From the IMG/VR virus record IMGVR_UViG_3300027733_000138, positions 1 through 33,219 of that record: a DNA stretch of 33,219 bases, one strand, 5' to 3'. Below are positions 17,981 through 26,772 of the stretch, one piece after another; positions within the stretch are counted from its first letter, which is position 1, and the number at the start of each line of letters is the position of its first letter. A program made the position numbers and the translations under genes. The DNA is from a virus. Under the pieces are notes generated by a model that was given only the letters and a program-made list of their open reading frames with translations, had not been told where the DNA came from and made no database searches.

Positions 17981-19156
17981 TTAAATTGTTATTGTTGAAT
18001 ACTTACCACTTGGTCGGTTGTTTAACTTGTTTAATGCCACATACCTCATCGGGTCAATGCAATGGTTCATTGTGTCAATGGGTTTTCCAGTTAGTTTACC
18101 ATCACGGTCAGTTTCCCATTGGTATGCTCTCAATTCTTTGATTAAATTGGTTGATGTCTTGGTGATGTTCAAATCATATCTTTTCAAAATGTCAATTCCA
18201 ATCTTGACTGAATCAGCACCTTTTTGTGCAGGATGAACATTGAATCCTTGCCTCCTTAACTCCTCAATTGATTTTGGTTCTGCACTATCACATATCAATT
18301 CATTTCTGCCAAAGTTAATTGACTTCAAAAAGTTTCCAATGTCATTGTTGGTCATATTGGTTTGATACAATAATTCATCAATCCACAATTTGCCATCCTG
18401 TTTCCACACACCAATCAAAGTGGTTGGGTCATTTGTGAATCCAAAGTCCATTGAGTACGCAACCAATTTTGCATCTGATGGTATGGCATCAACTTGTCTC
18501 CAATTGTCAATGACAACACCTTGCAATGAACCAATTTGACCTAATCCATACACCTTCCACCAGTTTTCCCAATATTTTGATGTCTTTGCTTTCTCTTTTG
18601 CTGATTCAATGTCGTTAATGATTGTCTGTGGCAATGCCTCATTGTCTTTGTAGGTTAATATCAGATGTTGTGAATCTGCCTCTCTCAGCACTTCCGTGTG
18701 ACCCCAAAATTCAGTTGTTGGATTAAAGTCAATAAAGATGTCATCACTTGTTCTGATTGCCAGTTGATAGTATGCCTCAAAACTGATGTTGTTAGCCTCA
18801 TTTATGTACAACACATTTCTTCTTGCACCACGCAATTTTGATTCTTGTTCAGCACTAAAAAATTCAATGTATGACCCATTTGTGAATTTATAAGTCAACA
18901 ATGACCTGTTCCAATTCTGTTCAAAATACCGATTTGTCCAATTCATTATTTTCAAGAAATCCTTCATTGCCCCTCTACGCAAATGGGGAACGGTCTCAGA
19001 TACAATTGAAATTTCAAGATTGGGTTTTTTAATAGCCATATCAATCAACACCGGGATGATGCCGAAAGTCTTTCCTGCAGATGTGCCACCTTGAATGACC
19101 TTCTTTCTTGCAGTCAATAACCTGATTTTGTCAATTGCCGTTGTGTATTTGAACAT
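17981..19156 (-). CDS. terL: Terminase large subunit
   Basis: This is the DNA-packaging motor and genome-cutting nuclease. I use ATG 19156 (MFKYTTAIDKIRLL), giving 391 residues; an upstream TTG adds only five. Walker A is GGTSAGKT at 23-30 and Walker B is VLYINEAN with Glu120. The nuclease acids are Asp237 (SMDFGFTNDPT), Asp290 (ELICDSAEPKS) and Asp368 (HCIDPMRY). The short spacing and motif style place it with the PBSX-like group. It acts with the small subunit encoded just upstream and the portal. Complete and apparently functional. Confidence 0.95.
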   Translation of the reverse strand: MFKYTTAIDKIRLLTARKKVIQGGTSAGKTFGIIPVLIDMAIKKPNLEISIVSETVPHLRRGAMKDFLKIMNWTNRYFEQNWNRSLLTYKFTNGSYIEFFSAEQESKLRGARRNVLYINEANNISFEAYYQLAIRTSDDIFIDFNPTTEFWGHTEVLREADSQHLILTYKDNEALPQTIINDIESAKEKAKTSKYWENWWKVYGLGQIGSLQGVVIDNWRQVDAIPSDAKLVAYSMDFGFTNDPTTLIGVWKQDGKLWIDELLYQTNMTNNDIGNFLKSINFGRNELICDSAEPKSIEELRRQGFNVHPAQKGADSVKIGIDILKRYDLNITKTSTNLIKELRAYQWETDRDGKLTGKPIDTMNHCIDPMRYVALNKLNNRPSGKYSTITI

Positions 19157-19167
19157 ATTTTTGGAAA

Positions 19168-19230
19168 TCAAAATGCGATTTGCCCATCGTGTGGTATCGC
19201 AATTTTATTGGATTCCTTTATGTGGAACAT
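19168..19230 (-). other. 20-codon reading frame between terminase genes
   Basis: ATG 19230 lies one base past the small-terminase stop and the frame runs 20 codons to TGA 19168-19170. The peptide contains IPHDGQIAF, which resembles the start of some other large terminases (PHxGQxxFH). It could be a coupled leader peptide or a relic of a former terminase start; chance is possible. It is not in frame with the large subunit. Confidence 0.3.
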
Positions 19231-19231
19231 T

Positions 19232-19660
19232 TTATTCTTTGGAATCTGTTTTCACATCACCAAAAAGTGGTTGTTCTTTGACAATCATTTCTGATTTCTC
19301 AGTCAAGCCATTCAATCGTTGTGTGATGCTTGTATTGTAGACTCCTGCCAACCCACCTTGAATTTGGTCTTCCTTGATTCTTCTTCTTATGTGTGTACAG
19401 ATGGTGGCAAAATCTGAATATCTTTGCCCTTTATTTGAAAAATAATCACCCAAATCATTGATGTGTCCATTGTCATAGCAGAAAATTTCAAATCCTTCCA
19501 TTGTCAATGCCCTTTCTCTTTTCTCATAGACAGATTTGCCATCTTTTCCAACAAAGGTATGTTTCAAAATTGGATTTGATTTTGTTTGTTCAATATAGTC
19601 ATTGAATAGTTGTTCCATTATTTCAGGTGTTTCAATGTTTTTTGGTCTTCCTCTTTTCAT
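19232..19660 (-). CDS. terS: Terminase small subunit
   Basis: This 142-residue protein should recognise the packaging site and load the large subunit. The basic N-terminus KRGRPKN is AT-hook-like. The core contains ERALTMEGFEIFCYDNG, then FATICTHIRRRIKEDQIQGG and AGVYNTSITQRLNGLTEK, a pattern I know from Bacteroidetes phage small terminases. It lies directly before the large subunit and overlaps the methyltransferase stop by 4 bases. Confidence 0.85.
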   Translation of the reverse strand: MKRGRPKNIETPEIMEQLFNDYIEQTKSNPILKHTFVGKDGKSVYEKRERALTMEGFEIFCYDNGHINDLGDYFSNKGQRYSDFATICTHIRRRIKEDQIQGGLAGVYNTSITQRLNGLTEKSEMIVKEQPLFGDVKTDSKE

Positions 19661-20331
19661 ACTTTGAATACTTTATTGTGAATTACATTAAATTGAAATT
19701 TTAAATCAGTATTGGGGATGTATTTATTTACTGCATCGGTGACTGATTGGATACCTTGAAAAAATCCAAAAGGCATATTAAGGTCATTTGCACAATCATC
19801 AACAATCAAATACTTGTCTGCGATTTTTCCATAGTTTAAAAGGTCGCTATATGCGACATCAAATGAATGTCCACCATCTATGTACACCAAATCAAACTTT
19901 TTATCACATACCTGTTCAATGATTTTTTCATCTGTTGATAGTCCTTTGTATATGTTTGGCTTTGGCAGTTCAAATAATTTATGCAAATCAATTATGTCTT
20001 GTTTATAGTTTGATTCCCAATGACCATCAGTTGAATCCAAAGGAGTGATGCCATATACTTTGACCTTCTTGCCTGATAGTTTTGCCAATAGTTTAATCAA
20101 TGCAAGTGTTTGCCCTCTAAAAACACCTATTTCAAGAAATGTGAATGATTGTGGCATCTCATCAACAATAAGTTTCCACATCCAATAGAATGCCCTTTCA
20201 CCAAACCCAAATGCGTGTGCCTCAACATAATCCCTCAATTGTTTCAATTCAGGTATTGAATTTGTCTTTTGTGTGAACTCATCTGCAATTCGTTGATTCC
20301 ACTCTTTTGTATTTTCCCAATTTATCATCAT
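19657..20331 (-). CDS. SAM-dependent methyltransferase, possibly sugar O-methyltransferase
   Basis: This 224-residue class I methyltransferase has the SAM-binding loop FLEIGVFRGQT (65-75), LVYIDGGHSFDVAYSDL near 147-163 and IVDDCAND near 175. The pattern fits the Methyltransf_24 / CmcI / TylF-like group, which often methylates sugar hydroxyls. It starts in the stop of the PLOD-like glycosyltransferase (ATGA) and ends in the small terminase start, so it is co-translated with both. It probably caps a sugar added by the neighbouring glycosyltransferases. The substrate is inferred. Confidence 0.75.
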   Translation of the reverse strand: MMINWENTKEWNQRIADEFTQKTNSIPELKQLRDYVEAHAFGFGERAFYWMWKLIVDEMPQSFTFLEIGVFRGQTLALIKLLAKLSGKKVKVYGITPLDSTDGHWESNYKQDIIDLHKLFELPKPNIYKGLSTDEKIIEQVCDKKFDLVYIDGGHSFDVAYSDLLNYGKIADKYLIVDDCANDLNMPFGFFQGIQSVTDAVNKYIPNTDLKFQFNVIHNKVFKV

Positions 20332-20951
20332 ATTAAATTATAAAATTCATCCATATATGCTTTTCCATTGCCGTGAATGAAACAAGGTGTTGTGTTTAAT
20401 TCTGTTATGACCTTTGATTCTTCAATTCTGTAATCAGTTGGTAATATGCCACACAAGGTTTGAAACACATCACGGTTTCTGTCTAAATTCAAATTGTGAT
20501 TCAATACCCAATCAGTAATTATGCGTTGGTCATCACAATCATTTGGTGTGTTGGATAGGTTCATCAATTCTAAAAACAACCAACTTTTCATATAATATGT
20601 GCCTGAATTAGGGAATTTCCATCTGTATTCTTCATCATTGTGCAAAAAATACTTGTTTCTTTCTGCATCCGGCCAACAATTCACCTCAGTTGATACCAAT
20701 GAATTCTTTCCCTCAAAGTGATGTTTGATGTTGTCATAACTATTCAGGCAAAATGTATCATATCCATCCAAAAAAATGAATTCTTCAACATCACTATTAA
20801 CCAAATATTCTTTCACTTGGTTCAACTTTGTACCAAATCCACGCCAATCTGCTCTGATAATTTCAAAATCCCATCCAAAATGATTCAATGACCTTTCAAT
20901 TTGAAATGCCCTTGACCTTTCATCAACTACAGTAATAACTTTACAACTCAT
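20328..20951 (-). CDS. PLOD-type glycosyltransferase
   Basis: This 207-residue protein resembles the glycosyltransferase domain of procollagen lysyl hydroxylase/galactosyltransferase (PLOD) proteins. Key features are EEFIFLDGYDTFC with the metal-binding LDGYD at 61-65, FPNSGTYYMKSWLF near 115-127, NDCDDQRIITDW and the C-terminal CFIHGNGKAY. It would transfer a sugar from a nucleotide-sugar donor, often to a hydroxyl group. It overlaps the GT2 gene by 11 bases and the methyltransferase by 4. Target unknown; virion protein, DNA or host glycan are all possible. Confidence 0.72.
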   Translation of the reverse strand: MSCKVITVVDERSRAFQIERSLNHFGWDFEIIRADWRGFGTKLNQVKEYLVNSDVEEFIFLDGYDTFCLNSYDNIKHHFEGKNSLVSTEVNCWPDAERNKYFLHNDEEYRWKFPNSGTYYMKSWLFLELMNLSNTPNDCDDQRIITDWVLNHNLNLDRNRDVFQTLCGILPTDYRIEESKVITELNTTPCFIHGNGKAYMDEFYNLI

Positions 20952-21699
20952 TATAAATACTTAATTTGCCATTTATTAAGTCATCCTTCATACGATTAAA
21001 CTCAGCCATATCATTTTGTGCCAATAATTTTTTTTCTTGCCAATACTGGTTTTCTTTGGTGTCTATATGGTCAATGTCAATGTGTGAAATGAATGAATTC
21101 TTAAATCCTGCCAATTTACATCTGACTGCAGAAAGTGTGTCATCAAATCCGTATATGCTTGGTTGTATCAATCCACCAATTTTTTTGATTAATGTCTTGT
21201 TGTACATCTGACAAGTGCCTATAATATGCTCAGCATCTTCTACTATTTTCCAAGATTCGCCATTTTTATGTGGCAACATTCTCAATGATGTCTTCCATTG
21301 GTCATTCCTGTGTGGGTTTTCCATCAAGTCCTTTCTTTTCAAACCAAGAATGCCAATTGATGGGTCTGCCTCCAAATATTCTTCCATTTCATCCACCCAG
21401 TTTGAATAATTGATGACAACATCATTGTCCATTTTAATCAGATGCTCATTGCCTTGTCTTAATTTCCAACCACGATTTATTGCTTTTGCCGTTCCAACAT
21501 TTTCAGACAATGTGATAATGGTGAATTGATTGTGTTTTTTCAATACCTCTTTTGTTTCTTGACAGGAATTGTTATCAATTACCACAACTTGATGCTGATT
21601 CAAATCAACTGTTTCCCATAAACAATTTAAAGTTTCTTTGGTATATGCAGTTCTTTCGTTTTCTTCCGTGTCATAAACTGCCATTGCAATCAAACTCAT
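20941..21699 (-). CDS. Family 2 glycosyltransferase
   Basis: This 252-residue GT-A fold enzyme has VVVIDNNSCQETKEVL (38-53), SENVGTAKAINRGW (65-78) and the metal/nucleotide-sugar motif KMDNDVVI with Asp91 and Asp93. Further motifs are GTCQMYNKTLIKKIGG and YGFDDTLSAVRCKLAG, the acceptor side of family 2 enzymes. No membrane segment is present, so it acts in the cytoplasm. It is in an overlapping run with the PLOD-like enzyme, the methyltransferase and terminase. The C-terminal IDHIDTKENQYW is also typical. Confidence 0.85.
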   Translation of the reverse strand: MSLIAMAVYDTEENERTAYTKETLNCLWETVDLNQHQVVVIDNNSCQETKEVLKKHNQFTIITLSENVGTAKAINRGWKLRQGNEHLIKMDNDVVINYSNWVDEMEEYLEADPSIGILGLKRKDLMENPHRNDQWKTSLRMLPHKNGESWKIVEDAEHIIGTCQMYNKTLIKKIGGLIQPSIYGFDDTLSAVRCKLAGFKNSFISHIDIDHIDTKENQYWQEKKLLAQNDMAEFNRMKDDLINGKLSIYNEL

Positions 21700-21980
21700 A
21701 CCTTCTTTGGTCTTCCTTTCTTTGGATGCTCTGTCTTAACTTGCAATTCGTACCTTTCAATCCAATACATAAAATTTTTCAATGCATCAAGATTGCAACC
21801 TGAACAATTGCCGGGTCGGATGCCTGTTATGTCTGCAACCAATTCCTTGATTTTCATCAATTGAAATGGTGAGCCAACCCAATCCGATTCGTTTTTGAAT
21901 ACATCCATAACCTTGTAAAGTGTGAATCTGTCACCTGTATCTTCAAATAGTGATTCGTAAATTTGTTGATATGTCATCAT
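21696..21980 (-). CDS. Small basic protein, possibly DNA-binding
   Basis: This 94-residue protein contains GIRPGNCSGCNLDALKNFMY and ends HPKKGRPKKV, an AT-hook-like tail suggesting DNA contact. The CxxC could bind metal but no second pair is visible. It overlaps the genes on both sides by 4 bases. Function unknown. It sits between glycosyltransferases without being an obvious sugar enzyme. Confidence 0.55.
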   Translation of the reverse strand: MMTYQQIYESLFEDTGDRFTLYKVMDVFKNESDWVGSPFQLMKIKELVADITGIRPGNCSGCNLDALKNFMYWIERYELQVKTEHPKKGRPKKV

Positions 21981-22231
21981 AGTTTTTCAATTTCTTCTTT
22001 TACTTGTAACCAATAAGTTAAATACATAGGGTGAACAGTAAAATAGTCACTACCAGTATATAATAATTTATCATCAAAATGTCCATCTTCTTCTCTGCTT
22101 TCAATTATTTCATCAACTGCAATTAAAGCACATTGTTTACTATGTATTATTGCATCTGCTGGCATTCCGTAATACCCATAATTATTATAGAATTTTTGGT
22201 ATAATTCTTCTGCTTTTTCTTGTGGTGTCAT
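21977..22231 (-). CDS. Small acidic protein, unknown function
   Basis: This 84-residue protein begins MTPQEKAEELYQKFYNNYG, and contains ADAIIHSKQCALIAVDEII, a pattern I have seen in small Bacteroidetes phage proteins of unknown role. No membrane segment. The DNA looks more AT-rich than its neighbours, suggesting it may have been gained separately. Overlaps the flanking genes by 4 bases. Confidence 0.6.
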   Translation of the reverse strand: MTPQEKAEELYQKFYNNYGYYGMPADAIIHSKQCALIAVDEIIESREEDGHFDDKLLYTGSDYFTVHPMYLTYWLQVKEEIEKL

Positions 22232-22464
22232 AGTTTAAACATTAATCGTTTGATAATTATTGACAGATATGAACCAAATCCACCAATTGCCAATGCTTCA
22301 ATAATCGGTCTCAATGGTTCACAATAGTATTGAATGATGTATGCAATCATACAAGTCCAAAAAGATAAACACACCACACAATTAAATGGCTTAAAATCCA
22401 ACCAACTTGGTATCTGATTGAGTGAAAAAAAACTCACCCACAAAAATGCAATTCCTAATATCAT
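22228..22464 (-). CDS. Small membrane protein in glycosylation block
   Basis: This 78-residue protein has two or three hydrophobic segments (MILGIAFLWVSFFSL; CVVCLSFWTCMIAYIIQYY; ALAIGGFGSYLSIII) and a basic end. It sits between the GT4 enzyme and the other sugar genes with 4-base overlaps. It may anchor or assist membrane-linked sugar transfer, but that is inference. A holin-like role cannot be excluded by topology. Confidence 0.55.
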   Translation of the reverse strand: MILGIAFLWVSFFSLNQIPSWLDFKPFNCVVCLSFWTCMIAYIIQYYCEPLRPIIEALAIGGFGSYLSIIIKRLMFKL

Positions 22465-23513
22465 TTTACTATTTTTTTATAAACTTCAAATCGTTTTGTT
22501 GCAACCTCTTTAATGTGAAATTGCTGAACATCATTGTGCAATTGTTCTGCCAATTCTTCAATCCTGTGTGGATTATCAATCAAATAAGTCATATGCTTGT
22601 ACCAGTCCTTTTTTGTATGTGCAATTAAGCAATTCACACCATCATTCAACAATGGTGTATAAGGTTGAACACCTGAAACGATTGCTGCCTTCTTTTTGAA
22701 TCCTGCTTCAAGCAATTTAAGATTGGATTTCATTGAATTGAATCGGTTGTCCCTCAAAGGTATTAATGCAATATTGATTCTGTCATAAAAATTAGCATAG
22801 TTGTAAACATCAGTTGCAGGAAAAAGAAAGAAATGGTCAGGCAATGCCGTTCCTTTTGCACTTAAAATACCTGCCATTGCTTTACTTGTTTCATTGTTTC
22901 CATCGTATCCACCATAAACCATTCGCATCTTGTTTTTATAATCTGATTTATACAATGAATACAATGAATCAACGGTCAACATTAAGTCATCAAAATGCGT
23001 AATTGAACCACTCCACCCAAATGTGGGCATATCAAATCCAAATTGTTTGACTTCAAATTGTTCATTTGGATTAATTCCATTTGGAATGACATATGCGTTT
23101 TCATTTAGTAATTCTGAATGAATCATTTTTTTCATTTCTGAATGTGTACAGGTGATGGCAGTTGCGTGATATCCACCCAATTTGATGTGATATGGATGCT
23201 TTTTCTTGGTTTGCTCATACAAAATATGACTTGATGGCAATTGATAGTCATCATCTAAATCCAAAACATATGGCACATTTGTATCTTTTAATTTTGAAAT
23301 CAATTGTTCTGTGTTCAATGTCTTTGAAATGAATCTATTGGCAACAATCAAATCATATTCTTTTAAAAATTCTTCTTTTGATGAGTCAATTTCTGTGACC
23401 ATATCAATTGTGCATTCAAAATTCTTTGCAATGTAATTGTGTGGCACAACTAATCGGTGATAATCAACACCACTAATTCGTGGATAAGATGGAACAACAA
23501 CCAATATTTTCAT
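22461..23513 (-). CDS. GT-B (family 4-like) glycosyltransferase
   Basis: This 350-residue protein is a GT-B fold enzyme. Its N-terminal domain starts MKILVVVPSYPRISGVDYHR with VPYVLDLDDDYQLPSSH near 80-95. The C-terminal domain has YVIPNGINPNEQF (about 140-150), FGWSGSITHFDDL, NIALIPLRDNRFNSMKSNLK and LLEAGFKKKAAIVSG, which match the donor-binding region of family 1/4 enzymes. No membrane segment. It overlaps the sigma-like gene by 4 bases. It is the first of three glycosyltransferases in the block. Donor and acceptor unknown. Confidence 0.83.
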   Translation of the reverse strand: MKILVVVPSYPRISGVDYHRLVVPHNYIAKNFECTIDMVTEIDSSKEEFLKEYDLIVANRFISKTLNTEQLISKLKDTNVPYVLDLDDDYQLPSSHILYEQTKKKHPYHIKLGGYHATAITCTHSEMKKMIHSELLNENAYVIPNGINPNEQFEVKQFGFDMPTFGWSGSITHFDDLMLTVDSLYSLYKSDYKNKMRMVYGGYDGNNETSKAMAGILSAKGTALPDHFFLFPATDVYNYANFYDRINIALIPLRDNRFNSMKSNLKLLEAGFKKKAAIVSGVQPYTPLLNDGVNCLIAHTKKDWYKHMTYLIDNPHRIEELAEQLHNDVQQFHIKEVATKRFEVYKKIVK

Positions 23514-25261: not shown

Positions 25262-26161
25262 TTAATCATTTGAGCATTCAGACCAAATTTCACAACTATC
25301 ACCACCAAGCAAATCCAATTGCCAAGTATAAACATCAGCATCATTTATTATTTTACCATTGAATTTTTTTGAATTTTCAAGTATATCAATTCCTGATTTA
25401 TTATCTCTAAAAAATGTTATATTTTTAGGTATTTCTTTGCCTTCATTAATAAATTTTTGAATTCTTTGTTGTGGGAAAAAATTACCATATTCCTTTTCCA
25501 TTCTAATCATAAAATCAAAAGCAGATGGATTTTCTTTTGCTATTTGATTCAACTTATTATATGATTTTTTCCAACAAGTTTGACAATTACCTTGATATCC
25601 TTTTAATTCCAATCTGAATGGCATTTTTTTCCAATATAAATTAATCATTGGTTTATTGCTTGGTATCATTTTATTATTAATTAAAGGATAGATATATCCA
25701 TTTTCCCTTGATTTTGGATTTATTCTATCCGCTTCATCCATTCTTATGCCAATAGCAGTATTATATTTTTCACAATTAAACCATTGTTTACCAAATTTAC
25801 TAATTGGTATACCTTTTAATTCTTTTGTACATTGTGGATTTGACTGATTTGGTATCCCGTATTTTTTTATAAATTCTTCAAATGGTTCTCCATTTCTACT
25901 TGCATTTATAAAATCAGTTTTATAAAAATTTGTTCCTTTTCTGTATTTGTGAATAATATCTGCCTCAATCCATTGAATTTTTAAATTAAAATGTTTGTCA
26001 CATTTTTCAACAAATTCAAGTGTTTGTTCATTTTCCAATCCTGTATTTGCAAATACAAAAACTATATTTTCATATCCAAATTCTTTGTAATGATTATTTA
26101 ACCATTGAGCCATAAATGCAGATGTTTCACCACCTGAAAACGATACTAATAAATTTTTCAT
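25262..26161 (-). CDS. PP-loop ATPase, PAPS reductase-like
   Basis: I start at ATG 26161, overlapping the previous stop by 4 bases, giving 299 residues. The N-terminal PP-loop SFSGGETS (7-14) activates a group with ATP, as in PAPS reductases, adenine nucleotide alpha hydrolases and DndC-type proteins. VFVFANTGLENEQTLEF (35-50), Cys111, IGIRMDEADR (138-146) and the pair NCQTC (Cys193, Cys196) follow; the Cys residues could hold an iron-sulfur cluster. The DNA looks clearly more AT-rich than its neighbours, suggesting recent gain. Sulfur transfer to nucleotides or DNA and base modification are possible roles. Confidence 0.78.
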   Translation of the reverse strand: MKNLLVSFSGGETSAFMAQWLNNHYKEFGYENIVFVFANTGLENEQTLEFVEKCDKHFNLKIQWIEADIIHKYRKGTNFYKTDFINASRNGEPFEEFIKKYGIPNQSNPQCTKELKGIPISKFGKQWFNCEKYNTAIGIRMDEADRINPKSRENGYIYPLINNKMIPSNKPMINLYWKKMPFRLELKGYQGNCQTCWKKSYNKLNQIAKENPSAFDFMIRMEKEYGNFFPQQRIQKFINEGKEIPKNITFFRDNKSGIDILENSKKFNGKIINDADVYTWQLDLLGGDSCEIWSECSND

Positions 26162-26772
26162 AATATTGGGTCTCCCTTCCAATCAAGTTTTATTTCTTTT
26201 TTAATCTCATCCATCCAACACTTTCCATTCAAATATGTCAATGGGTTTTTTCTAAATTGAACATCAGGTGTACTTGCAATATAGTCAGGTAATGTTGATT
26301 TGATTTGTTCCAATTCTTTATCACTTAATTTTTCAAACTTGTCTTTGCACTTTTTTGTATCAACTTTTTTACCATATAAATTCCAAAAGTCATCAAATGT
26401 ATATATTATATCATTTACATTAACATTAACATTAACACCTTCGTTTGCTTCAGTTTGCTTCACATTTGAAGCATTTGCTTCATTTTGCTTCATTTTGCTT
26501 CGCCTTGCTTCACCACTTTTGATGCCTCCCAATCTTCCTGATTCTGACCTTTTTGGTTTAATTTCATTGTTCCATTTTTCCAAATCTCTTTTCAATTGTT
26601 GTTTAATTGGTTCAAATGTAAGTTCAATAATTAAGTCATCAGTAATTGGATTTTGGTCATTGACATATCTCAAAATATGCTTGAATAAATCACCTGCTTT
26701 GTCAGATGGCATTTTTTCAATTGTGTGTATCAAGTCTGAATACAACACAAAACTTTTTTTACCTGTAGCCAT
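26158..26772 (-). CDS. Replication-associated protein, DUF6291-like
   Basis: With ATG 26772 (MATGKKSFVLYSDL) the protein has 204 residues; the longer frame adds sequence that overlaps a small upstream frame. The N-terminal 90 residues (IEKMPSDKAGDLFKHILRYV, DPIxxEL-type pattern) resemble the DUF6291 group of replication-linked proteins. A low-complexity linker follows (KQNEANASNVKQTEANEGVN, then repeated Asn-Val). The C-terminal domain has FDDFWNLYGKKVDTKKCKDK and FRKNPLTYLNGKCWMDE, common in DnaT/replisome organiser ends. It may help load the helicase. Confidence 0.68.
   Translation of the reverse strand: MATGKKSFVLYSDLIHTIEKMPSDKAGDLFKHILRYVNDQNPITDDLIIELTFEPIKQQLKRDLEKWNNEIKPKRSESGRLGGIKSGEARRSKMKQNEANASNVKQTEANEGVNVNVNVNDIIYTFDDFWNLYGKKVDTKKCKDKFEKLSDKELEQIKSTLPDYIASTPDVQFRKNPLTYLNGKCWMDEIKKEIKLDWKGDPIL
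26414..26515. repeat. Coding low-complexity repeats
   Basis: The plus strand shows several TTAACA units followed by many TTTGCTTCA-like units. They encode Asn-Val repeats and KQxEAN-type repeats in the linker of the replication protein. Unit lengths keep the frame (6- and 9-base steps), so copy number could vary without breaking the gene. Confidence 0.7.

What the first reader, a model, noticed from the sequence alone, without database searches (positions are those of the whole stretch)
19657..23513. Phage-borne sugar-modification block: three glycosyltransferases and a methyltransferase
GT-B, GT2 and PLOD-type enzymes plus a TylF/CmcI-like methyltransferase run in overlapping genes straight into the terminase operon. 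This would allow building a short methyl-capped glycan. PLOD-type enzymes act on hydroxylated lysine in other systems, so glycosylation of virion protein is worth considering; DNA hypermodification or host surface change are alternatives. With four small linked genes (one membrane protein) it could be an undescribed virion or DNA glycosylation system.
Basis: partly seen in the sequence, partly recalled or inferred. Interest (0 to 1): 0.78.

Follow-up and report, generated by a model that had tools for sequence, protein, structure and literature searches.

The report
Swappable phage glycan-building gene cassette
An uncultured phage, probably infecting Flavobacterium-like bacteria, carries a tightly packed set of sugar-adding and methyl-adding enzymes beside its DNA-packaging genes, and relatives keep one part of the set while swapping the rest, which suggests these phages dress their own particles with interchangeable sugar caps.

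Summary
In detail: seven overlapping minus-strand genes run GT-B, a membrane protein, two small proteins, GT2, PLOD-type GT, O-methyltransferase, then straight into terS and terL. It is far more than chance. In relatives, a triad (GT-B, the 78-aa membrane protein, the 94-aa protein) is fixed. Between it and terS lies a variable slot, most often GT2-PLOD-methyltransferase, otherwise other methyltransferases or an unidentified enzyme. Every PLOD gene with room has GT2 directly upstream (50/50), and PLOD and methyltransferase are fused into one protein in seven divergent loci, so they act in one pathway. The PLOD protein keeps every active-site residue reported for the mimivirus glucosyltransferase R699, whose acceptor can be a plain hexose, so hydroxylysine is not required; none of 28 phages has a PF13640-type hydroxylase. 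I judge virion-protein glycosylation most likely (about 0.55): in divergent phages the GT-B gene also sits between terL and a head gene, or inside the capsid-portal block, and cultured cyanophages place PLOD-type enzymes beside collagen-like tail fibres. DNA and host-surface targets are less likely but not excluded. The acceptor is unproven. New variant of a known kind.

The parts
22461..23513 (-). GT-B fold glycosyltransferase (GTB), first gene of the fixed core; candidate initiating transferase
   Evidence: PF13524 1.2e-6, phrog_7162 1.4e-39; conserved in 14 divergent homologues; in other phages lies between terL and the next head gene or inside the capsid-portal block
22228..22464 (-). s78TM: 78-aa membrane protein, two predicted TM helices, invariant DFKPFNCxxCLxFW motif; part of the fixed core
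   Evidence: GTB directly upstream in 68/70 and s94 directly downstream in 70/73 distinct copies with room; weak DUF1360 similarity only; TM prediction
21977..22231 (-). s84: small hypervariable protein, probably not part of the system
   Evidence: phrog_21441, unknown function; 30-39% identity between otherwise closely related genomes, relatives also found elsewhere in genomes
21696..21980 (-). s94: 94-aa protein of unknown function, invariant TGIRPGxCxGC motif; third member of the fixed core
   Evidence: no Pfam, PHROG or cultured-phage match; s78TM directly upstream in 70/70 distinct copies with room
20941..21699 (-). GT2 family (GT-A fold) glycosyltransferase with DND metal motif; slot gene
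   Evidence: PF00535 7e-15; D91-N92-D93 invariant; directly upstream of every PLOD gene with room, 50/50
20328..20951 (-). PLOD-type GT-A glycosyltransferase, predicted UDP-glucose-dependent transferase acting on a hexose
   Evidence: PF25342 2e-16; profile match to R699 6e-22 and LH3 6e-23; AlphaFold model pLDDT 86 matches R699/LH3 at TM 0.80-0.87; active-site residues conserved
19657..20331 (-). SAM-dependent O-methyltransferase, predicted glycan cap
   Evidence: PF13578 2.7e-7; model pLDDT 84.6, fold matches MeT1, SafC, TrmR; fused to PLOD in seven divergent loci
19232..19660 (-). terminase small subunit; downstream edge of the variable slot
   Evidence: PF16677 1.7e-8; alignment to L004 and L007 resumes exactly at window 19660
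17981..19171 (-). terminase large subunit (an ATG lies 15 bases inside the listed TTG start)
   Evidence: Terminase_3C 1.7e-19; start region read

Best explanation
A late-expressed, phage-specific system builds a short methyl-capped glycan on a protein of the phage's own particle. The fixed core (GTB, s78TM, s94) is proposed to add the first sugar. The slot enzymes then extend and cap it: GT2 adds a sugar, the PLOD-type enzyme adds glucose from UDP-glucose, and the methyltransferase O-methylates the product. Swapping the slot would change the outer part of the glycan while the core stays. Shown here: gene order, conservation, slot swapping, obligate GT2-PLOD pairing, PLOD-methyltransferase fusion, intact PLOD active site. 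Inferred: the order of steps, the sugars, late expression, and a virion protein (capsid, tail or fibre) as acceptor.
For: Eight genes from GTB to terS overlap. Triad fixed next to terS/terL. Slot swap in near-identical relatives: L004 (terL 98%) keeps GTB, s78TM, s94 and GT2 but has two other methyltransferases instead of PLOD and MT; homology breaks near window 21030 and resumes at 19660. PLOD-MT fusions in seven divergent loci. GTB also lies between terL and the next head gene (L200, L202) and inside the capsid-to-portal block of G012. No thymidylate synthase-type hydroxymethylase in 20 phages, the window included; Tet_JBP in 3 of 28, all without GT2 and PLOD in their slots. No integrase in 27 of 28. 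PLOD and MT profiles match 1 and 0 of 295 genomes of the Flavobacterium MAG's class. In cultured cyanophages PLOD-type GTs sit beside collagen-like tail fibres. Capsid and tail glycosylation is established in mycobacteriophages (PMC11256854; PMC12619734).
Against: No acceptor is identified and no glycan has been seen. Late position next to terminase also suits DNA-modifying genes, and Mom, ParB and Tet_JBP genes occupy the same slot in some sisters. The invariant membrane protein would fit envelope work better than virion work. Loci are related, so counts are not independent events. The virus record is not shown to be complete.
Confidence: 0.55

Rival explanations
1. DNA hypermodification: the enzymes glycosylate and methylate a modified base in phage DNA to block restriction.
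For: Phage GTs that glycosylate DNA are known (PMC12619734). Some sister phages carry ParB, Mom or Tet_JBP genes in the same slot.
Against: The window has no enzyme that would make a sugar-accepting base: no thymidylate synthase-type hydroxymethylase, no Tet_JBP. The Tet_JBP-bearing slots carry no GT2 or PLOD. The GTB matches GT4-like models, with no match to T4 AGT/BGT models.
Confidence: 0.17
2. Host-surface modification during infection: the enzymes alter LPS, capsule or glycolipid so that other phages cannot adsorb or released progeny are not trapped.
For: An invariant membrane protein in the core. GT2 matches a GtrB-like PHROG weakly (5e-4); the GTB profile matches a bacillosaminyl-PP-undecaprenol GalNAc transferase (1.8e-5). 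Pelagimyophage authors read their GTs this way (PMC7029224).
Against: No flippase, no polyprenyl-phosphate GT and no sugar-nucleotide genes seen; no tyrosine integrase in 27 of 28 phages, so probably no lysogen to benefit. All four enzymes lack TM helices. The PLOD and MT families are nearly absent from 295 sampled bacterial genomes of the likely host class.
Confidence: 0.2
3. Collagen-type modification: the PLOD-type enzyme glycosylates hydroxylysine in a collagen-like phage protein.
For: The PLOD GT domain is homologous to LH3 and R699; cyanophages S-CAM9 and S-8S53 appear to have such a pathway beside a collagen-like tail fibre.
Against: No run of 6 or more Gly-X-Y triplets in the window or ten relatives; no 2OG-Fe(II) oxygenase of PF13640 in 28 phages; no GT25 match in the window.
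Confidence: 0.03

Closest known systems
Virion glycosylation of mycobacteriophages Che8, Rita and relatives (Freeman et al. 2023, cited through PMC11256854 and PMC12619734)
   Same: Phage-encoded glycosyltransferases; capsid and tail-tube proteins carry glycans there, and the same is proposed here.
   Different: No mycobacteriophage is named among the tblastn matches listed for GTB, and there were none for GT2, PLOD or MT (the GTB list is partial). PLOD-type GT, s78TM, s94 and slot architecture were not found described there. The 2023 paper itself was not readable.
Mimivirus R699 and human LH3 GT domain (collagen glucosyltransferases, PF25342)
   Same: Fold (TM 0.80-0.87) and all residues reported at the R699 donor/acceptor site.
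   Different: Free-standing 207-aa domain with no accessory or lysyl hydroxylase domain; partnered with GT2 and a methyltransferase.
GT25-PLOD fusion with 2OG oxygenases in cyanophages S-CAM9 and S-8S53 (phrog_61 may be related)
   Same: Phage PLOD-type GT encoded beside a virion gene.
   Different: Collagen-like tail fibre and hydroxylases present there, absent here.
GtrABC serotype conversion
   Same: A GT2-family enzyme is present.
   Different: No flippase, no membrane GT, no integrase.
T4-type DNA glucosylation
   Same: GT-B enzyme in a lytic-looking phage.
   Different: No hydroxymethylase and no T4 AGT/BGT match.

Membership tests
PLOD GT domain (PF25342) | Pfam match above the curated cut-off | tested here: met
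   60.4 bits against 27, E 2e-16
PLOD GT domain (PF25342) | Non-canonical DxxD metal motif with Tyr, plus metal-binding His | tested here: met
   D62-G-Y64-D65 and H193, aligned to LH3 D112/Y114/D115/H253 and R699 D83/D86/H216
PLOD GT domain (PF25342) | R699 glucose-site residues K62, E114, W118, N138, D162, D163, Q164 | tested here: met
   K42, E89, W93, N115, D140, D141, Q142 in the alignment; residues from PMC11838735
PLOD GT domain (PF25342) | UDP-glucose transfer activity | not testable with these tools
   needs enzyme assay
Lysyl hydroxylase/PLOD pathway on hydroxylysine | Lysyl hydroxylase in the genome | tested here: not met
   no PF13640 match in window and 27 relatives; other oxygenase families only through the Pfam scan of window proteins
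Lysyl hydroxylase/PLOD pathway on hydroxylysine | Collagen-like Gly-X-Y acceptor | tested here: not met
   no run of 6 or more triplets in window and ten relatives
Phage virion glycosylation system | Phage-encoded glycosyltransferases | tested here: met
Phage virion glycosylation system | Glycan covalently bound to a virion protein | not testable with these tools
   needs mass spectrometry
T4-type DNA glucosylation | Enzyme producing a hydroxymethylated base | tested here: not met
   no PF00303 in 20 phages, no Tet_JBP in the window
GtrABC seroconversion | Flippase and membrane-bound glucosyltransferase | tested here: not met
   no such Pfam match among window proteins; the four enzymes have no TM segment
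TylF/CmcI O-methyltransferases | TylF (PF05711) or CmcI (PF04989) model match | tested here: inconclusive
   window MT matches only PF13578; slot alternative in L004 matches TylF, fused L193 matches CmcI at 0.002; CmcI is Foldseek rank 41

The most novel reading that the evidence does not exclude
A previously undescribed modular glycan-coat system of Bacteroidota phages: an invariant core (GTB, s78TM, s94) marks a virion protein and a swappable cassette between it and terS determines the outer sugars and methyl caps, so that near-identical phages differ in particle surface glycotype, with s78TM and s94 as new dedicated components.
Probability: 0.35. Interest if true: 0.8.

Novelty: new variant of a known kind. 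Interest (0 to 1): 0.56.

Why it matters
Virion glycosylation by phage-encoded enzymes is established in only a few phages. A compact system in small phages of probable Bacteroidota hosts, with two dedicated unknown proteins and a swappable capping cassette, would widen this to Gram-negative hosts and give a natural set of near-identical phages differing mainly in glycan enzymes. It would also supply free-standing PLOD-type glucosyltransferases from bacterial viruses for biochemistry.

Tried and rejected
Finding a cultured phage with the block: no tblastn match for PLOD, GT2 or s94 in 50,697 phage records; MT only in two records of an uncultured 735-kb phage. Finding the block in a bacterial genome: the GTB scan of genome contigs gave nothing; the terL scan gave Flavobacterium and other Bacteroidota (and one Sulfurovum) loci, none showing the block genes in the fetched flanks. 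Naming s94, s78TM or the 222-aa slot protein (HSGGHGD motif, which reminded me of GT9 heptosyltransferases) by Pfam, PHROGs or PDB failed. Covariation of a structural protein with cassette type: per-gene identities of L003 and L004 give no clear case; a tape-measure-like protein is only 46% identical in L004, but one pair cannot carry the argument. A Bacteroidota-type promoter search gave scattered hits, one at 24013-23981 upstream of GTB inside the preceding gene, no better than the opposite strand. The Freeman 2023 paper is not held.

Full report
OBSERVATION. The window is a 33,219-base virus record, 33% GC, with almost all plausible genes on the minus strand. The block lies exactly where stated. 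In order of transcription: GTB 23513-22461, s78TM 22464-22228, s84 22231-21977, s94 21980-21696, GT2 21699-20941, PLOD 20951-20328, MT 20331-19657, terS 19660-19232, terL 19171-17981. Overlaps are four bases, eleven at GT2/PLOD. Family matches are above curated cut-offs for GTB, GT2, PLOD, MT, terS and terL.

FIXED CORE AND VARIABLE SLOT. A terL search gave 80 related viral loci. Where terL is about 72% identical or more and the contig reaches far enough, GTB, s78TM and s94 stand upstream in the same order. Further scans with s94, PLOD and s78TM profiles gave, among distinct copies with room, s78TM directly upstream of s94 in 70/70, GTB directly upstream of s78TM in 68/70, GT2 directly upstream of PLOD in 50/50, and MT directly downstream of PLOD in 35/58. 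The loci are related, so these are not independent events, and the profiles were built from window relatives. Seventy distinct slots between s94 and terL were tallied. GT2 then PLOD then MT is the commonest filling. Alternatives are Methyltransf_23 enzymes, TylF-type methyltransferases and a 222-aa protein that no library named. L004, with terL 98% identical, keeps the core and GT2 but replaces PLOD and MT with two other methyltransferases; DNA homology stops near window 21030 and resumes at 19660, the start of terS.

PATHWAY LOGIC. In seven divergent loci (L176, L181, L193, L195, L198, L200, L202; L200 and L202 nearly identical) PLOD and MT are one protein, N-terminal PLOD and C-terminal MT. 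With obligate GT2 pairing, this points to one acceptor that is glycosylated and then methylated.

PLOD ENZYME. The profile of nine phage PLOD proteins matches LH3 (6e-23) and mimivirus R699 (6e-22). The AlphaFold model (pLDDT 86) matches both at TM 0.80-0.87. R699 residues reported to bind Mn, UDP-glucose and the disaccharide (PMC11838735) all align to identical residues in the window: K62 to K42, D83 to D62, D86 to D65, E114 to E89, W118 to W93, N138 to N115, D162/D163/Q164 to D140/D141/Q142, H216 to H193 (chain numbering is three higher; mapped by hand). LH3 uses the DxxD motif with Tyr114 and His253 (PMC6082870). R699 transfers glucose to a hexose, so a hydroxylysine acceptor is not required. 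No PF13640 oxygenase occurs in 28 phages and no Gly-X-Y run in the window or ten relatives.

METHYLTRANSFERASE. Model pLDDT 84.6. The best fold matches are TrmR, MeT1 and SafC at TM 0.6-0.7. As I recall, MeT1 is a polysaccharide O-methyltransferase, SafC a catechol one and TrmR a tRNA one. The fold alone does not fix the substrate.

TARGET. For a virion target: GTB is found at three places, all in the packaging/head region: upstream of terS, between terL and the next gene (L200, L202), and inside the capsid-to-portal block of G012; only 1 of 28 phages has a tyrosine integrase; and the PLOD and MT families are nearly absent from 295 genomes of the class to which the Flavobacterium MAG belongs (the MT search had no positive control among those genomes). 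Against DNA: no base-hydroxylating enzyme in the window, and Tet_JBP-bearing slots lack GT2 and PLOD. Position alone does not decide, because Mom, ParB and Tet_JBP genes share the slot in some sisters. Against the host surface: no flippase, no membrane GT, no integrase; in its favour, the invariant membrane protein. I put virion protein at 0.55, host surface at 0.20, DNA at 0.17.

PRECEDENT. Glycans on capsid and tail proteins of mycobacteriophages are reported in the literature (PMC11256854; PMC12619734). Cultured Synechococcus phages S-CAM9 and S-8S53 carry a tail-fibre gene with 55-59 uninterrupted Gly-X-Y triplets, then two genes annotated as 2OG-Fe(II) oxygenases (PF13640 confirmed for S-CAM9) and a GT25-PLOD fusion. 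That is a separate system, but it places a phage PLOD-type enzyme beside a virion protein.

HOST. The nearest isolate terminases are in Flavobacterium psychrophilum phages at 55%, and terL relatives lie mostly in Bacteroidota genomes, including Flavobacterium, so a Flavobacterium-like host is likely but not shown.

Noticed in passing
L290:3399-12255 (KU686206, S-CAM9) and L287:1-6227 (OQ504982, S-8S53): Cultured cyanophages: tail fibre with 59 (S-CAM9) or 55 (S-8S53) uninterrupted Lys-rich Gly-X-Y triplets, then genes for two 2OG-Fe(II) oxygenases and a GT25-PLOD fusion: apparently a full collagen-type hydroxylysine glycosylation pathway.
   Followed up: partly
L122:8594-9385, L163:7205-7921, L214:6076-8586: In sister phages the same slot carries DNA-modification genes: Tet_JBP oxygenase, Mom, ParB and a small P-loop kinase-like protein.
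   Followed up: partly
L176:5989-7332 and six further loci: PLOD-type glycosyltransferase fused to the O-methyltransferase in one reading frame.
   Followed up: yes
L143:4805-5344: Family of about 179-aa proteins near terS and terL in eight sister slots (F8) that looks like an HNH homing endonuclease by eye; not checked by profile.
   Followed up: no
window 25262-26182: PAPS reductase-like gene (PF01507 2e-7, phrog_424 2.6e-46) between replication genes; function in this phage unclear.
   Followed up: no
window 21977-22231: s84-type proteins ('AKQCALIAVDEI...VKKEIEKL') are hypervariable and scattered through related genomes; role unknown.
   Followed up: no
L019:7998-9224: The terL match as delimited by tblastn contains two in-frame stops; not examined for a break, insert or wrong start.
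   Followed up: no
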